Below, piece by piece: positions 51,288-55,763 of a stretch of DNA of 64,000 bases. The DNA is taken from contig NZ_CP017705.1 in NCBI RefSeq assembly GCF_002706795.1, positions 1,615,501 to 1,679,500 on the forward strand, given 5' to 3'. Positions within the stretch are counted from its first letter, which is position 1. Every line of letters starts with the position of its first letter. The position numbers were made by a program, and so were the translations under genes. Origin of the DNA: Brevibacillus laterosporus DSM 25. Lineage in GTDB: Bacteria; Bacillota; Bacilli; Brevibacillales; Brevibacillaceae. A model generated the notes under the pieces. The model was not told where the DNA came from. It searched no databases and saw only the letters and a list, made by a program, of their open reading frames with translations.

Positions 51288-51311
51288 ACCCAGTACCTTT
51301 TGGCACTGGGT
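51288..51311 (-). terminator. Possible terminator after the VanS-like kinase
   Basis: Stem ACCCAGTACC / GGCACTGGGT (one mismatch, 4-base loop), minus strand followed by CTTTTAAT. Weak T-tract and 138 bases from the stop, so uncertain. No other element seen in 51072-51448 besides the Fur box. Confidence 0.5.
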
Positions 51312-51448: not shown

Positions 51449-52840
51449 CTATTTCATAACATTCGCTAAGGGCATCGTAAAGTAAAAAGCAATGATCTCC
51501 TGTTCTACGCGTACTCCAAATGATGCATGATGTTTCTGCAAAATGGTTTGAACAATAGATAATCCTAATCCGGTACCACTCAAATTCTTATTTCGGGAGC
51601 TCTCGATTACATAGAAGGGTTGCCAAATTTTTTCGGAATACTTGCTATCCCAATACTCAATACCATTTTTTATACAGAACACTAAATGCTCTTCATCTCT
51701 TTGAAGCAAGATTTCTATCTGTTGATTTTTTGTGTACTTCACTGCATTACTGATAAAATTATCAAGCACAATCTCAATCTTTGCTCGATCCCCTACAACA
51801 AAACAATTGCTTAGTCCACAATCTTCTACTGTGAGAATGAGGTCTTTCTGCTGAATAGCAATCTGATATTTGTCTATGGTTTGCTTCCATAAAAGACAAA
51901 AGTCAAATGACTCCATCGTGAATGAGTCATTCTGTAGTTTGGACAGATTCAGTAGCTTGTCTACAATCCCAGACATATCATCCGCTTGCCTTTTAATAAC
52001 ATCAATGAACGTGCCATCATCTAGTCCATCCTTTATCCCGGTAGAGTACGCTTTGATAAGCGAAATCGGTGTTTTTAACTCGTGGGAAATGTCCGAAATA
52101 AATATGCGTAGGTTTTGATTTTTTTCTTCCAACGCTTCTAGGGCCTCTTTTAACTTGTCACTCATAATATTAATGCTTTCCGCCAAGCTTTCTATTTCAT
52201 CACCAGTCTGAATCTCGGATTTTTGAAAAGACAAATGAGAGATGTCCTCTGCCGTTTGTCGTAACTGGCTCAGGGGACGTACAATTTGCCTAGAAATGAG
52301 CCATGATAATCCGATTGTCAATAATAGTGTTCCTATCGCTAAATATAAGTTAAATTCGTTAACCATTTGAATAAATGCACTTGAATGGGCAATGGAATCA
52401 CCGATAACGAATAATGTACCATTCTTGTTTAAAAAAGTTACCAAAAAACTAGTCTCTAGCTTCTCTTGGCTATAAATTTTGCGGACTGTCTCATGCTTTT
52501 CTAATTTTTCATAGCTCTCTTCTGTAATCCAGAATTTAGACAGCGTAATTCCTTTTTTATGTAATTCGTCTCGTACCAAACCATTCAATTTATTGATATC
52601 TGTACGAAAAGGTGCTTGCACAATTGTTACATTGTAGTCATACTCCAGCTTTTCAACATCATCGAGTAATTGTGCTATATCCATTGTTTCCAGCTTAGAA
52701 GTAAGCTCTGCTAAATTAATTTTTTTCTGATGCAAAATATAGCTTGGTAAAAAAAACGTAGTAAGTAGATAAGACAGCACAAATACAAAGCAAATAATAC
52801 CTGATGTGCGTAAAAATAGCTTTCGACTTAGCTTATTCAT
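51449..52840 (-). CDS. Sensor histidine kinase, VanS-like
   Basis: 463-residue membrane kinase: segment 1 about 11-33, extracytoplasmic domain of about 130 residues, segment 2 about 163-182, HAMP 183-240, HisKA with His253 (FISDISHELKTPISLIKAYSTGI), ATPase domain with NFISNAVKYT and GTGLGLSIVQTILQKH. ATG at 52840 lies inside the end of the regulator gene (8-base overlap); the frame extends upstream, but that part is the regulator's coding region. The large outward domain fits sensing of an external or lipid-II-linked signal. Last gene of the SDR-MurG-regulator-kinase unit. Confidence 0.9.
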   Translation of the reverse strand: MNKLSRKLFLRTSGIICFVFVLSYLLTTFFLPSYILHQKKINLAELTSKLETMDIAQLLDDVEKLEYDYNVTIVQAPFRTDINKLNGLVRDELHKKGITLSKFWITEESYEKLEKHETVRKIYSQEKLETSFLVTFLNKNGTLFVIGDSIAHSSAFIQMVNEFNLYLAIGTLLLTIGLSWLISRQIVRPLSQLRQTAEDISHLSFQKSEIQTGDEIESLAESINIMSDKLKEALEALEEKNQNLRIFISDISHELKTPISLIKAYSTGIKDGLDDGTFIDVIKRQADDMSGIVDKLLNLSKLQNDSFTMESFDFCLLWKQTIDKYQIAIQQKDLILTVEDCGLSNCFVVGDRAKIEIVLDNFISNAVKYTKNQQIEILLQRDEEHLVFCIKNGIEYWDSKYSEKIWQPFYVIESSRNKNLSGTGLGLSIVQTILQKHHASFGVRVEQEIIAFYFTMPLANVMK

Positions 52841-53480
52841 GTCCGACTTCCAAACTATATCCGACGCCACGATGGGTCTTGATAAGCTGCTCCCCAATTT
52901 TTTCACGGAGCCTACGAATGTGTGTATCTACGGTTCTTTCTTCTCCATAATAATCGAATCCCCAAACCTGATCTAACAGCGTTTTCCGCGATAAAATTCT
53001 TCCACGATTTGTGAGAAAGCATTTCATTAATTGGAACTCCTTTTTCGTAGCCTCTAGGTCGATTCCATCCTTAAATATTTTGCCCCCTTGCATATCCACC
53101 CGCAATGGACCAATTCGAATGCTATCTTCTATTTGCAGTAGCTTTTTCGCTCGTACTATTAAAATTCGCGGCTCAAAGGGCTTCCTGACATATTCATCCG
53201 CTCCCATTTCTAATGCCATCAGTTCGTCCTCATGCTCTCCTTTAGCTGTAAGCATTAATACTTTGGCGGTATGATGTCCTTTAATCTCTTTGCACACCTC
53301 AAGTCCACTAATCTTTGGCATCATCCAATCAAGCACGGCTAGATCAATCTTTTGATTATAAAAGACCGCTAAGGCTTCCTCACCATCTTGTGCTGTAAAC
53401 GTCTGAAATCCCTCTTTTTCAAAATAGAGCCGTATAATTCTCAGCATGTCCAGATCATCGTCTGCAAGTAATATATTCAT
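52833..53480 (-). CDS. OmpR/VanR-type response regulator
   Basis: 215-residue regulator. Receiver: acidic pocket Asp7-Asp9, phosphoacceptor Asp51 (LAVLDWMMP), Thr/Lys switch (MLTAKGEHEDE, YVRKPFEP). C-terminal winged helix GRILSRKTLLDQVWGFDYYGEERTVDTHIRRLREKIG. AAGGAG before the ATG. 53 bp after the murG-like gene, probably the same transcript, and it likely regulates that unit. Confidence 0.92.
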   Translation of the reverse strand: MNILLADDDLDMLRIIRLYFEKEGFQTFTAQDGEEALAVFYNQKIDLAVLDWMMPKISGLEVCKEIKGHHTAKVLMLTAKGEHEDELMALEMGADEYVRKPFEPRILIVRAKKLLQIEDSIRIGPLRVDMQGGKIFKDGIDLEATKKEFQLMKCFLTNRGRILSRKTLLDQVWGFDYYGEERTVDTHIRRLREKIGEQLIKTHRGVGYSLEVGHE

Positions 53481-53533
53481 AGATACTCCTTGTTCCCATC
53501 ATTTATGTAAGCAATCAGTCTCGCATCTTCCAT

Positions 53534-54613
53534 TTAATGATAGAGACTACGTTTATCAAAACCCTTAATTAATTCCATAACCTTCTCCACAGCTTTTCCA
53601 GAATCGTCGGTTTTCATCTGTCGGATATATGATTCACGATTTTGATGTAGATAATAGACATGCTCCAAAAATGTTTGATTTGTCATATTCTCTTGCATGA
53701 GAATCTCTGCATATCCCGCATGTTGAAAATTTTGTGCGTTCCTTATCTGTCCATTTCTTGTACCGCCACTGGTATGCGGAATTAGCAGCATAGGCTTTTG
53801 CAAGGCTAACAATTCATGTATAGAGTTAGAACCAGCGCGTGACACCACTATATCAGCCGCTGCCAACAAATCAGGCAATACATGTGTGACATATTCAAAT
53901 TGTTGATACCCCTCTTGATGGATGGAAGCATCTATTTTCCCCGGCCCACATAAATGGATCACTTGGAAGCTTAGTAATAGCTCAGGTAAAACCGCTCGAA
54001 CAACCTGATTAATTTTCTCTGCACCTTGGCTCCCTCCCATCACAAGAAGGACGGGCTTTTGAAAGGTAAAGTTACAGAAAGAAATTCCTCGCTCTCGCTC
54101 CCCCGATTTGAGCGTATCTTTAACAATAGCTCCTATATGAGTGATCTTTTTTGATGGATCATTTTTTTTCGTTTCTAAAAAGGTTGTACACACCTTTGTA
54201 GCAAAAGGATAAGATATCCGATTCGCAAGCCCCATACGCACATCAGGTTCATGAATGATAGTAGCAATCCCATTCATTTTTGCTCCGAGGACTACTGGAA
54301 CGGAAACAAATCCGCCTAGAGAAAATACCACATCAGGTTTCAGCTTTCTCATTAGGAGATACGCTTGAAGGATACCTTTCATCACTTTGTAGATATCAGT
54401 AATGTTCTTCCAATCGAGATAGCGCCGTAGCTTACCAGTTGATACGCTGTGATAGTGAACCTGCTCGAATTCCGCTACAAGCCTTTGCTCTATACCATTT
54501 TCTGATCCGATATAATGGATTTCATAATTTTCCTCTGTACATTTGGGAATCAGCACTAAGTTGGCCGTTACATGACCGGCTGAACCGCCTCCTGTAAAAA
54601 TGATTTTTTTCAT
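53534..54613 (-). CDS. MurG-like N-acetylglucosaminyltransferase (probable second copy)
   Basis: 359-residue GT28 glycosyltransferase; MurG adds GlcNAc to lipid I to make lipid II on the inner membrane face. N-terminal loop GGGSAGHV (8-15; classical MurG has GGTGGH), SLGGFVSVPVVLGA, HEPDVRMGLANRI, UDP-GlcNAc loop MGGSQGAEKINQVV and SRAGSNSIHELLALQKPMLLIPH. This version resembles the clostridial/B. cereus-type MurG. It is not in a division-cell-wall cluster, so the housekeeping murG is probably elsewhere (inference). ATGA overlap with the SDR gene; VanRS-like pair follows. Confidence 0.88.
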   Translation of the reverse strand: MKKIIFTGGGSAGHVTANLVLIPKCTEENYEIHYIGSENGIEQRLVAEFEQVHYHSVSTGKLRRYLDWKNITDIYKVMKGILQAYLLMRKLKPDVVFSLGGFVSVPVVLGAKMNGIATIIHEPDVRMGLANRISYPFATKVCTTFLETKKNDPSKKITHIGAIVKDTLKSGERERGISFCNFTFQKPVLLVMGGSQGAEKINQVVRAVLPELLLSFQVIHLCGPGKIDASIHQEGYQQFEYVTHVLPDLLAAADIVVSRAGSNSIHELLALQKPMLLIPHTSGGTRNGQIRNAQNFQHAGYAEILMQENMTNQTFLEHVYYLHQNRESYIRQMKTDDSGKAVEKVMELIKGFDKRSLYH

Positions 54614-55593
54614 TTTAAGAACCCCCCAGTCTTTAGCATTTGTTTAACCTCTTCTTTTGTCATAAGGGAGCTTTCAGAATGGTAACTATGAAAACCAACC
54701 GGTTGGCAATTAGCGTAATGCTCCTGTAGCTCTGGAGATTGATAGGTAGGTAGAATCACAAAATAATCTTGGTTAAAATGAATCGCTCTGTGACTTTCAC
54801 ACTCCGAGATTAGTGTTTCATTAAGCTTCTCTCCAGGACGTAAGCCCAAAAGCTTTATTCCTATGTCATTTCTTCTCGATTCCTCGATGAATACCTCAGC
54901 CATATCACTGATCTTACAGGATGGCATATGTAAGACAAACGTCTCTCCTCCCATACTTTGCTCGGTAGCTATAAACAACATTTGAATCGCTTCTTCTAGT
55001 CGTAAAAAAAATCTTGTCATATTCATATCCGTCACACCCAAATCCAGTCCTTGCTGAATCTGATTTTGAAAAATAGGAATGACACTTCCTGTTGATCCTA
55101 GAACATTTCCACTTCTCACACAAACAAATCTGGTAGACGTGTCTCGCATATTGGCTTGAATAATGAGACGTTCCCCGATCGCTTTTGTCATTCCGTATGT
55201 ACTTGAAGGATTTGAGGCTTTATCGGTTGATACATAAATGACTTTTTTCACCTTATTTATGATGGCAGCTTCAATAACATTTTGTGTGCCGACCACATTT
55301 GTTTTAATAGCGATATCTGGTTGATTTTCACAAATAGGTACATGCTTTAAAGCGGCTAAATGATAGATATGATCGACACCCTGACAAGCCTGTATCATTT
55401 CTTGTTTATCGCGAATATCACCAATAATGAACTGCAATCGGTGATCATGAAAATACTGACTCATTTCCACTTGAAGCGCTTCATTGCGAGAATAGATACG
55501 TATTTCCTTTGGATTTTTCTCTAATAACTGAGTTACTAGTTCCCATCCCCAAGAACCGGTACCACCTGTAAGTAAGAATGTCTCGTTTTTCAT
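54610..55593 (-). CDS. UDP-sugar 4,6-dehydratase-like SDR (PseB/CapD type)
   Basis: 327-residue extended SDR of the polysaccharide-biosynthesis group acting on UDP-GlcNAc-like sugars. NAD loop TGGTGSWG (9-16), DIRDKQEM, HLAALKHVPICE, catalytic STDKA (Asp124/Lys125) with Tyr133 and Lys137 (YGMTK), MTRFFLRLEEA and LGLRPGEKLNE. ATG at 55611 is in frame, but GGAGGG before 55593 decides. Overlaps the murG-like gene by 4 bases: the pair suggests a modified UDP-sugar made and transferred in one step, though this is inference. Confidence 0.88.
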   Translation of the reverse strand: MKNETFLLTGGTGSWGWELVTQLLEKNPKEIRIYSRNEALQVEMSQYFHDHRLQFIIGDIRDKQEMIQACQGVDHIYHLAALKHVPICENQPDIAIKTNVVGTQNVIEAAIINKVKKVIYVSTDKASNPSSTYGMTKAIGERLIIQANMRDTSTRFVCVRSGNVLGSTGSVIPIFQNQIQQGLDLGVTDMNMTRFFLRLEEAIQMLFIATEQSMGGETFVLHMPSCKISDMAEVFIEESRRNDIGIKLLGLRPGEKLNETLISECESHRAIHFNQDYFVILPTYQSPELQEHYANCQPVGFHSYHSESSLMTKEEVKQMLKTGGFLK

Positions 55594-55702
55594 TTGAATT
55601 CCCTCCAGCACGTTGTTGCGAATGACTAGGTATATAGTAGTGCTGAAGTGTTACACCAGTATGACAAAAAAAGAAATGATAGGGCAGTCACGCTCAAGCC
55701 AC

Positions 55703-55728
55703 GAAAAAAGCCACCCCGGCAGGTGACT
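55703..55728 (-). terminator. Terminator at the end of the opp operon
   Basis: Seven-bp stem AGTCACC / GGTGGCT (one mismatch) with TTTTTTCG on the minus strand, 35 bases after the 147-aa gene. Confidence 0.75.
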
Positions 55729-55763
55729 TTCCATTGAAAAATTGCGTAATTACGCTCCAATGC

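What the first reader, a model, noticed from the sequence alone, without database searches (positions are those of the whole stretch)
51449..55593. SDR + second MurG-like transferase + VanRS-like pair: candidate envelope-modification system
Seen: four minus-strand genes with 4-, 53- and 8-base junctions: a PseB/CapD-type UDP-sugar dehydratase-like SDR, a MurG-like GT28 enzyme with a variant N-terminal loop (GGSAGH), an OmpR-type regulator and a kinase with a large external domain. Known: VanRS-type systems sense lipid-II-directed antibiotics; MurG uses UDP-GlcNAc. Inference: the unit makes a modified UDP-sugar and places it on lipid I or a related lipid when the wall is attacked, a resistance route different from D-Ala-D-Lac. 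Brevibacillus makes wall-active peptides, so self-protection is plausible.
Basis: partly seen in the sequence, partly recalled or inferred. Interest (0 to 1): 0.75.

Follow-up and report, generated by a model that had tools for sequence, protein, structure and literature searches.

The report
Inducible second MurG with own sugar-maker
This bacterium carries a spare relative of a key cell-wall enzyme, paired with an enzyme that probably makes an unusual sugar and with a private sensor and switch; the pair recurs in related bacteria and the spare enzyme's sugar pocket looks altered, so it may build a modified cell-envelope building block on demand, though what triggers it and what it makes are untested.

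Summary
The four genes are real: SDR (54610-55593), MurG-family transferase GT (53534-54613), PhoB/OmpR-type regulator (52833-53480), kinase (51449-52840), all minus strand. The genome has a separate murG in its wall-gene cluster. The GT is no copy of it (28%); it belongs to the Staphylococcus-type MurG family (49%), whose members are the only full MurG match in two genomes taken as staphylococci and in one of the window's genus. GTs beside this SDR form one clade, as do their SDRs, whose sisters sit in CapEFG/FnlABC-like cassettes; this module lacks those partners. Two cleft loops invariant in 75 of 75 other family members (HESD, RGDQ) are changed in the clade. A direct-repeat promoter box precedes the SDR or its operon in 33 of 34 loci and occurs once in this genome. 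RR-HK is adjacent in 17 of 31 genomes, in two arrangements. Best reading: a dedicated switch drives a two-enzyme module that makes a 4-keto-6-deoxy UDP-sugar and puts it on a lipid-linked acceptor, perhaps lipid I. 'VanRS-like' and 'self-protection' are not supported. Product, acceptor and inducer are untested.

The parts
55634..55666 (-). Promoter box TGTCAT-N5-TGTAAC-N10-TACTAT ahead of the SDR: 11-bp direct repeat placed 10 nt before a -10-like TANNAT, the layout of a PhoB/WalR-family activated promoter (layout recalled)
   Evidence: 0 mismatches; only match at <=2 mismatches in the 5.4 Mb genome (the reversed-pattern control also gave 1); box ahead of the SDR or its operon in 33 of 34 loci at <=2 mismatches; 85 control loci, 1.05 Mb: 0 at <=2, 4 at 3
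54610..55593 (-). SDR: UDP-GlcNAc 4,6-dehydratase-like enzyme (PF02719), 327 aa, TDK...YxxxK residues kept
   Evidence: only strong PF02719 match in the genome (317 bits; next 50.8)
53534..54613 (-). GT: Staphylococcus-type MurG-family glycosyltransferase, 359 aa, with changed HEPD and RNGQ loops
52833..53480 (-). RR: OmpR/PhoB-type response regulator, 215 aa
51449..52840 (-). HK: sensor histidine kinase, 463 aa, about 130-residue external domain, HAMP-HisKA-HATPase
51288..51311 (-). Terminator-like hairpin behind the HK (10-pair stem, T-rich tail)
   Evidence: 1 found; shuffles give 2.9 on average, so weak

Best explanation
A dedicated two-component system (HK senses an unknown envelope signal; RR binds the box at 55634-55666) switches on one promoter. 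The SDR converts UDP-GlcNAc to a 4-keto-6-deoxy-HexNAc nucleotide sugar. The GT, a Staphylococcus-type MurG whose cleft has been re-cut, transfers that sugar, in place of GlcNAc, to a polyprenyl-diphosphate-linked acceptor, most likely lipid I, giving a variant lipid II (or related lipid-linked disaccharide) only when induced. Shown here: the genes, their linkage across genera, apparent single origin of the pair, loop switch, conserved box. Inferred: box-RR pairing, chemistry, donor, acceptor, envelope stress as trigger. If the C4-keto group stays, such a lipid II could not be extended at C4 and would act as a strand cap or decoy; if it is reduced, it could be polymerised (inference from transglycosylation chemistry, recalled).
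For: A separate full-score murG is present in 7 of 7 module genomes searched (its wall-cluster setting was checked only for the window genome), so the GT is an extra enzyme. GT belongs to NF009102 (474.5 bits, cut-off 339) and is 49% identical to the MurG of a genome taken as Staphylococcus. SDR-linked GTs are one clade, 14 of 14, support 100/98 (bootstrap not fully settled); GT-linked SDRs one clade, 32 of 32, 96/96. In 23 of 23 genomes of G213's family with this SDR a GT follows directly, one partial and one in two pieces. Loop switch: P123 in 34 of 34 readable rows vs S in 75 of 75; position 288 G in 31 and E in 2 of 33 vs D in 75 of 75; it adjoins Q289 in the loop aligned with E. coli Q288/Q289, named as important for UDP-GlcNAc binding (PMC10966019, passages). 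A strong CapF-type reductase match is missing in 9 of 17 module genomes including this one, so the keto sugar may be used directly. Box in 33 of 34 loci; one match in this genome. RR-HK adjacent in 17 of 31 distinct genomes, downstream in 10 and upstream in 7: linkage survives rearrangement. Where unlinked, HK matches of 477-635 bits occur in 4 genomes, each with a box at <=2 mismatches near the HK.
Against: No biochemistry, no structure (prediction was off), no expression data. The loops could equally change acceptor or regulation. In 14 of 31 distinct genomes the TCS is not adjacent. In 7 of the 12 unlinked genomes searched the best HK match is only 401-412 bits, the same level as in G041, which lacks the module (409.9), and 1 (G656) has none; so kinase co-occurrence is weak there. 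8 of 17 module genomes do have a strong reductase match, elsewhere in the genome, that could act on the sugar. The reversed control of the box pattern also matched once in the genome. Extra boxed genes in relatives (phosphoesterase, GH5, GH129) would also fit a glycolipid or polysaccharide programme. RR scores best against PhoB, so a phosphate-type signal is open.
Confidence: 0.46

Rival explanations
1. The module makes a non-peptidoglycan glycolipid or surface glycan: the GT glycosylates another lipid-linked sugar or a diacylglycerol lipid, and regulon hydrolases trim it outside. It would work like C. difficile HexRK-HexSDF.
For: HexSDF is a TCS-run operon with a predicted MGDG-synthase-like HexS, needed for a glycolipid and for daptomycin and bacitracin resistance (PMC10128005, abstract and passages). 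Box-bearing genes of relatives include a metallophosphoesterase (best models YaeI 152 bits and LpxG 152 bits, both below cut-off), a GH5 protein with a weak endoglycoceramidase match (21 bits) and a GH129 protein.
Against: GT scores far above diglucosyl-diacylglycerol synthase models as a MurG (474 vs 27 bits) and keeps other motifs of the Staphylococcus-type family such as TGKLRRY and GGFVSVP.
Confidence: 0.28
2. The GT is an ordinary back-up MurG using UDP-GlcNAc, switched on when MurG or lipid II supply fails; the SDR makes a sugar for something else.
For: Family members are the only full MurG match in G047 and G360 (taken as Staphylococcus) and in G002 of the same genus. MurG genes accompany van operons in Paenibacillus and Actinobacteria (PMC9689679, PMC8698665, passages).
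Against: SDR and GT overlap by 4 bases in 22 of 34 loci and are adjacent in all but one of the 34; changed loops only in the SDR-linked clade; I saw no other evident user of the SDR product in the neighbourhoods printed, which were not all annotated.
Confidence: 0.17
3. A phosphate- or nutrient-limitation response that swaps a wall polymer, run by a PhoB/PhoP-like pair.
For: RR best NCBIfam model is PhoB (184.6 bits, cut-off 296); box layout resembles a Pho box (recalled); phosphoesterase genes carry the box in some relatives.
Against: Box occurs once in this genome, unlike a Pho regulon (recalled); no polymer genes beside it.
Confidence: 0.09

Closest known systems
MurG of Staphylococcus (NF009102/PRK12446 family)
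   Same: Fold family, 49% identity, TGKLRRY, GGFVSVP, the G-loop H and the C-domain E kept
   Different: HESD and RGDQ loops changed; a second full-score murG is present in 7 of 7 module genomes checked
CapEFG / FnlABC / WbjBCD nucleotide-sugar cassettes (names recalled)
   Same: SDR is sister to their first enzyme
   Different: No reductase and no 2-epimerase beside it; a MurG-family GT instead
vanRS-vanHAX loci with a murG downstream (Paenibacillus; VanO of Rhodococcus)
   Same: Two-component pair with an extra murG (PMC9689679, PMC8698665, passages)
   Different: No vanHAX-like gene among the ORFs beside this one (by eye); SDR instead; the GTs of those loci were not compared
HexRK-HexSDF of Clostridioides difficile
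   Same: TCS beside a small operon with a glycolipid synthase (PMC10128005, abstract and passages)
   Different: HexS is predicted MGDG-synthase-like, partners are a deacetylase and a flippase; no SDR

Membership tests
MurG equivalog (TIGR01133) | Score at or above cut-off 250.25 | tested here: not met
   224.7 bits; MurG of L161, taken as Staphylococcus, 254.8
NF009102/PRK12446 MurG family | Score at or above cut-off 339 | tested here: met
   474.5 bits
NF009102/PRK12446 MurG family | HESD and RGDQ cleft loops (the compared residues invariant in 75 of 75 relatives without the SDR) | tested here: not met
   HEPD and RNGQ in the window; clade-wide switch
MurG activity | Transfers GlcNAc from UDP-GlcNAc to lipid I | not testable with these tools
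   needs enzyme assay
PseB (TIGR03589) / FnlA (TIGR04130) | Scores at or above 407.75 / 730 | tested here: not met
   314.6 / 243.6 bits
UDP-GlcNAc 4,6-dehydratase-like SDR | TDK and YxxxK catalytic residues (roles recalled) | tested here: met
   T123 D124 K125 Y133 K137 invariant in the 7 aligned SDRs; seen in the 14 rows
CapEFG/FnlABC cassette | Adjacent reductase and 2-epimerase | tested here: not met
   not among ORFs beside the SDR; best reductase match in the genome 37.8 bits
VanR / VanS | Scores at or above NCBIfam cut-offs (350; 400) | tested here: not met
   161.7 and 97.4 bits
PhoB/WalR-type activated promoter | 11-bp direct repeat, 10 nt before -10 (definition recalled) | tested here: met
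   by pattern only; RR binding not tested

The most novel reading that the evidence does not exclude
An inducible programme that replaces the GlcNAc of lipid II itself with a 4-keto-6-deoxy sugar, using a MurG paralogue whose donor pocket switched once when it captured a private UDP-sugar dehydratase: a way of altering the peptidoglycan precursor on its second sugar rather than on the stem peptide, which would cap glycan strands or make decoy lipid II against wall-directed agents.
Probability: 0.27. Interest if true: 0.88.

Novelty: new variant of a known kind. Interest (0 to 1): 0.62.

Why it matters
Known precursor-level resistance mostly changes the stem peptide (for example D-Ala-D-Lac; recalled). 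A MurG paralogue with its own nucleotide-sugar enzyme and a one-promoter two-component switch would be a route to change the sugar of lipid II or to make a new lipid-linked disaccharide, and it comes with a ready test: an easily scored promoter box, one donor enzyme and one transferase.

Tried and rejected
'VanRS-like': rejected on model cut-offs. 'GGSAGH is a special loop': rejected, family norm. 'GT is a duplicate of the host murG': rejected, 28% and far apart in the tree. 'Part of a pseudaminic acid, bacillosamine or FucNAc pathway': not supported; no other strong PF02719 match, the one strong DegT aminotransferase lies among flagellar genes about 0.1 Mb away, no strong CapF-type reductase. 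'Carried on plasmids': the 9 GT-hit and 36 SDR-hit plasmid records share no genus, so none holds both at those limits (E limits 1e-40 and 1e-80). The neighbours (opp and siderophore transport-like genes) gave no clue; opp-like genes also lie near the pair in two Paenibacillus loci, which I did not follow. Papers: 10 searches were made; those aimed at this unit listed nothing that by title or abstract start describes an SDR-MurG-two-component unit (15 of 43 listed; none found). Papers seen: PMC8698665, PMC9689679, PMC10966019, PMC10128005 passages only (with the abstract of the last); PMC5039524 and PMC4790310 passages and one whole section each. The rest: listings.

Weak points: the 'other' GT set (75) came from best matches and holds near-copies; the SDR-linked set is 35 rows, 32 distinct, including fragments of L252 and L262. 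L070/L247, L071/L243 and L076/L251 are the same genomes twice, so 34 loci are 31 distinct genomes. The SDR model A5 was built from seven of the module SDRs, so their top scores are partly built in, and scores alone do not separate: a cassette SDR of G393 scores 543, module SDRs of G213's family 532 to 633. Only part of the class-level GT hits had their neighbourhoods fetched. Rows L066, L067, L089, L092, L150 were dropped from the GT tree, L076 and L262 from the SDR tree.
Full report
Observation. Families: SDR PF02719; GT PF03033 and PF04101; RR and HK ordinary OmpR/PhoB-type parts. The window lies in a 5.4 Mb single-contig genome. Host: its family (f1) holds G017 and G023, whose contigs match the named records Brevibacillus fortis and B. 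porteri in length and gene map; the genus is not the same as theirs.

A second MurG. The genome has six matches to PF04101 and one over the MurG cut-off, 321.5 bits, flanked by a FtsW/SpoVE-like gene and murB- and murA-like genes (named by eye). The window GT scores 224.7 against MurG (cut-off 250.25) and 474.5 against NF009102 (cut-off 339). It is 28% identical to the other MurG and 49% to the MurG of L161, a genome taken as Staphylococcus from its arlRS-odhA-like surroundings (label by recall); a plasmid-collection record labelled S. aureus gives 47%. In G047 and G360 (both taken as Staphylococcus) this is the only full MurG match, next 47-48 bits; in G002, of the window's own genus, the only full match (249.8 bits) is also of this type, next 53. 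So the family includes enzymes that must do the normal job. In the order, 21 of 39 genomes have a family member over the cut-off; of the 23 loci fetched for them other than the window, 20 have neither this SDR nor this TCS beside the GT and 3 have SDR-GT-RR-HK.

Conserved unit. Among 30 named loci found with the GT, 9 carry SDR and GT together: Brevibacillus 2, Paenibacillus 4, Bacillus sp. FJAT-28004, Peribacillus simplex, Pseudalkalibacillus decolorationis (in Peribacillus a small gene with a NUDIX-like motif, by eye, lies between). In 398 sampled genomes of the class, 7 have a GT-linked SDR (572-627 bits); 7 genomes with lower-scoring SDRs (543 to 485 bits) were mapped: none beside a GT, 6 of 7 in cassettes with a reductase-like and an epimerase-like gene. 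In 394 genomes of the family of G213, 23 have the SDR at E <= 1e-159, and in 23 of 23 a GT follows directly (one partial, one in two pieces). Over 34 loci (31 distinct genomes), RR-HK is downstream in 10 distinct genomes, upstream in 7 and not adjacent in 14.

Apparent single origin. In a 91-row tree the SDR-linked GTs are one clade (14 of 14, 100/98); in a 56-row tree the GT-linked SDRs are one clade (32 of 32, 96/96; 95% of 200 bootstrap trees; no far outgroup, so clade status depends on the root).

Changed cleft. Against 75 relatives without the SDR, the linked GTs (35 rows, 32 distinct) differ at two loops: S123 to P in 34 of 34 readable rows, D288 to G (31) or E (2) of 33, the G before it kept in 2 of 34, R286 kept in 26 of 34, H121 kept in 9 of 33; the other set has a single residue in 75 of 75 at each of these five. 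Also position 280 is H in 31 of 33 (others L 67, Y 7, I 1). The second loop aligns with E. coli Q288/Q289, which PMC10966019 names as important for UDP-GlcNAc (passages); the first aligns with E. coli HEQN. The G-loop H and the C-domain E are kept. I read this as a change of donor, perhaps also of acceptor. The 1NLM paper was not held, so atomic contacts are not cited.

Donor enzyme. The SDR keeps TDK and YxxxK. It is the only strong PF02719 match in the genome. A CapF-type reductase from the sister cassettes has matches of 262 to 623 bits in 10 of 19 genomes searched (8 of 17 with the module, plus 2 module-free controls); the window genome's best is 37.8 bits. So in 9 of 17 module genomes the known next step was not found; in the other 8 it could act.

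Switch. A box TGYCAWAYTNNYGTAAC-N10-TANNAT stands before the SDR, or before a GH5-like gene leading the SDR operon (L259, L261), in 33 of 34 loci at <=2 mismatches; 85 control loci (1.05 Mb) have none at <=2 and 4 at 3. The pattern was drawn from these same loci, so their fit is partly built in; the control and the genome scan are the fairer tests. In this genome it occurs once at <=2 mismatches; its reversed control also gave one, so one chance match in a genome is possible, but its place ahead of the SDR is not explained by that. HK relatives (E <= 1e-70) were sought in 20 genomes: found in 15 of 16 with the module, 11 of 12 of those with no adjacent TCS, and 1 of 4 without the module (G041). 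Of the 11, four (G573, G568, G639, G629) score 477-635 bits and have a box near the HK (G573 at 2 mismatches, the others at 0-1); the other seven score 401-412, no better than G041 (409.9). Three of these seven had their HK locus held and scanned (L272, L274, L275), with no box at <=3 mismatches; the other four were not held. G656 lacks both HK and box while its GT keeps the changed loops. Further boxes precede a metallophosphoesterase gene (L071/L243, L246, L267, L268; L271 at 2 mismatches), a GH5-like gene (L269) and a GH129 gene (L072, 2 mismatches); Pfam was run on those of L071, L267 and L072 and on the GH5 protein of L259, the rest are alike by eye. Seven loci (L132, L254-L258, L260) carry a 3-mismatch box at the place that in L132 is 30 nt ahead of RR.

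Mechanism. See best explanation. Steps shown: anatomy, conservation, loop switch, box. Steps inferred: regulator-box pairing, sugar chemistry, acceptor, signal. Lipid I is preferred as acceptor because the GT is nested in a MurG family and keeps its other motifs; a glycolipid acceptor is the main rival, with HexRK-HexSDF as model.

Novelty. Extra murG genes near van loci are in print (passages); an SDR-MurG unit with its own switch did not appear in the listings of the searches made (open-licence papers only).

Noticed in passing
G002:C1:411779-412831 (L008, L043) and G038:C1:375578-376624 (L044): In G002, of the window's genus, and in G038 the Staphylococcus-type MurG is the only full MurG match found (G002; G038: only).
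   Followed up: partly
hits H3 and H5: MurG genes of this type on a 42.6 kb Legionella adelaidensis plasmid (46%) and, more distantly, an Aureispira plasmid (35%), outside Bacillota.
   Followed up: no
L071 9450-10313, L267 3038-3958, L259 4717-6066, L269, L072 9297-11591: Genes for hydrolases (metallophosphoesterase, GH5, GH129) carry the same promoter box in relatives and so may belong to the regulon.
   Followed up: partly
L252 (G411), L262 (G575), L261 (G629), L249 (G438): Degraded or split copies: GT partial in L252, GT in two pieces in L262, GH5-like gene short in L261, HK split in L249; could be sequencing errors or decay.
   Followed up: no
G000:C1:1784540-1786347 (L185 8541-10348): The genome's only strong DegT-type aminotransferase match lies beside a hexapeptide acetyltransferase-like gene near flagellar and secA-like genes (by eye); possibly a glycosylation pathway.
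   Followed up: no
window 55698-55730: A hairpin with a short T tail seen by eye ahead of the box would separate the operon from the 147-aa gene upstream; the scan did not flag it.
   Followed up: no
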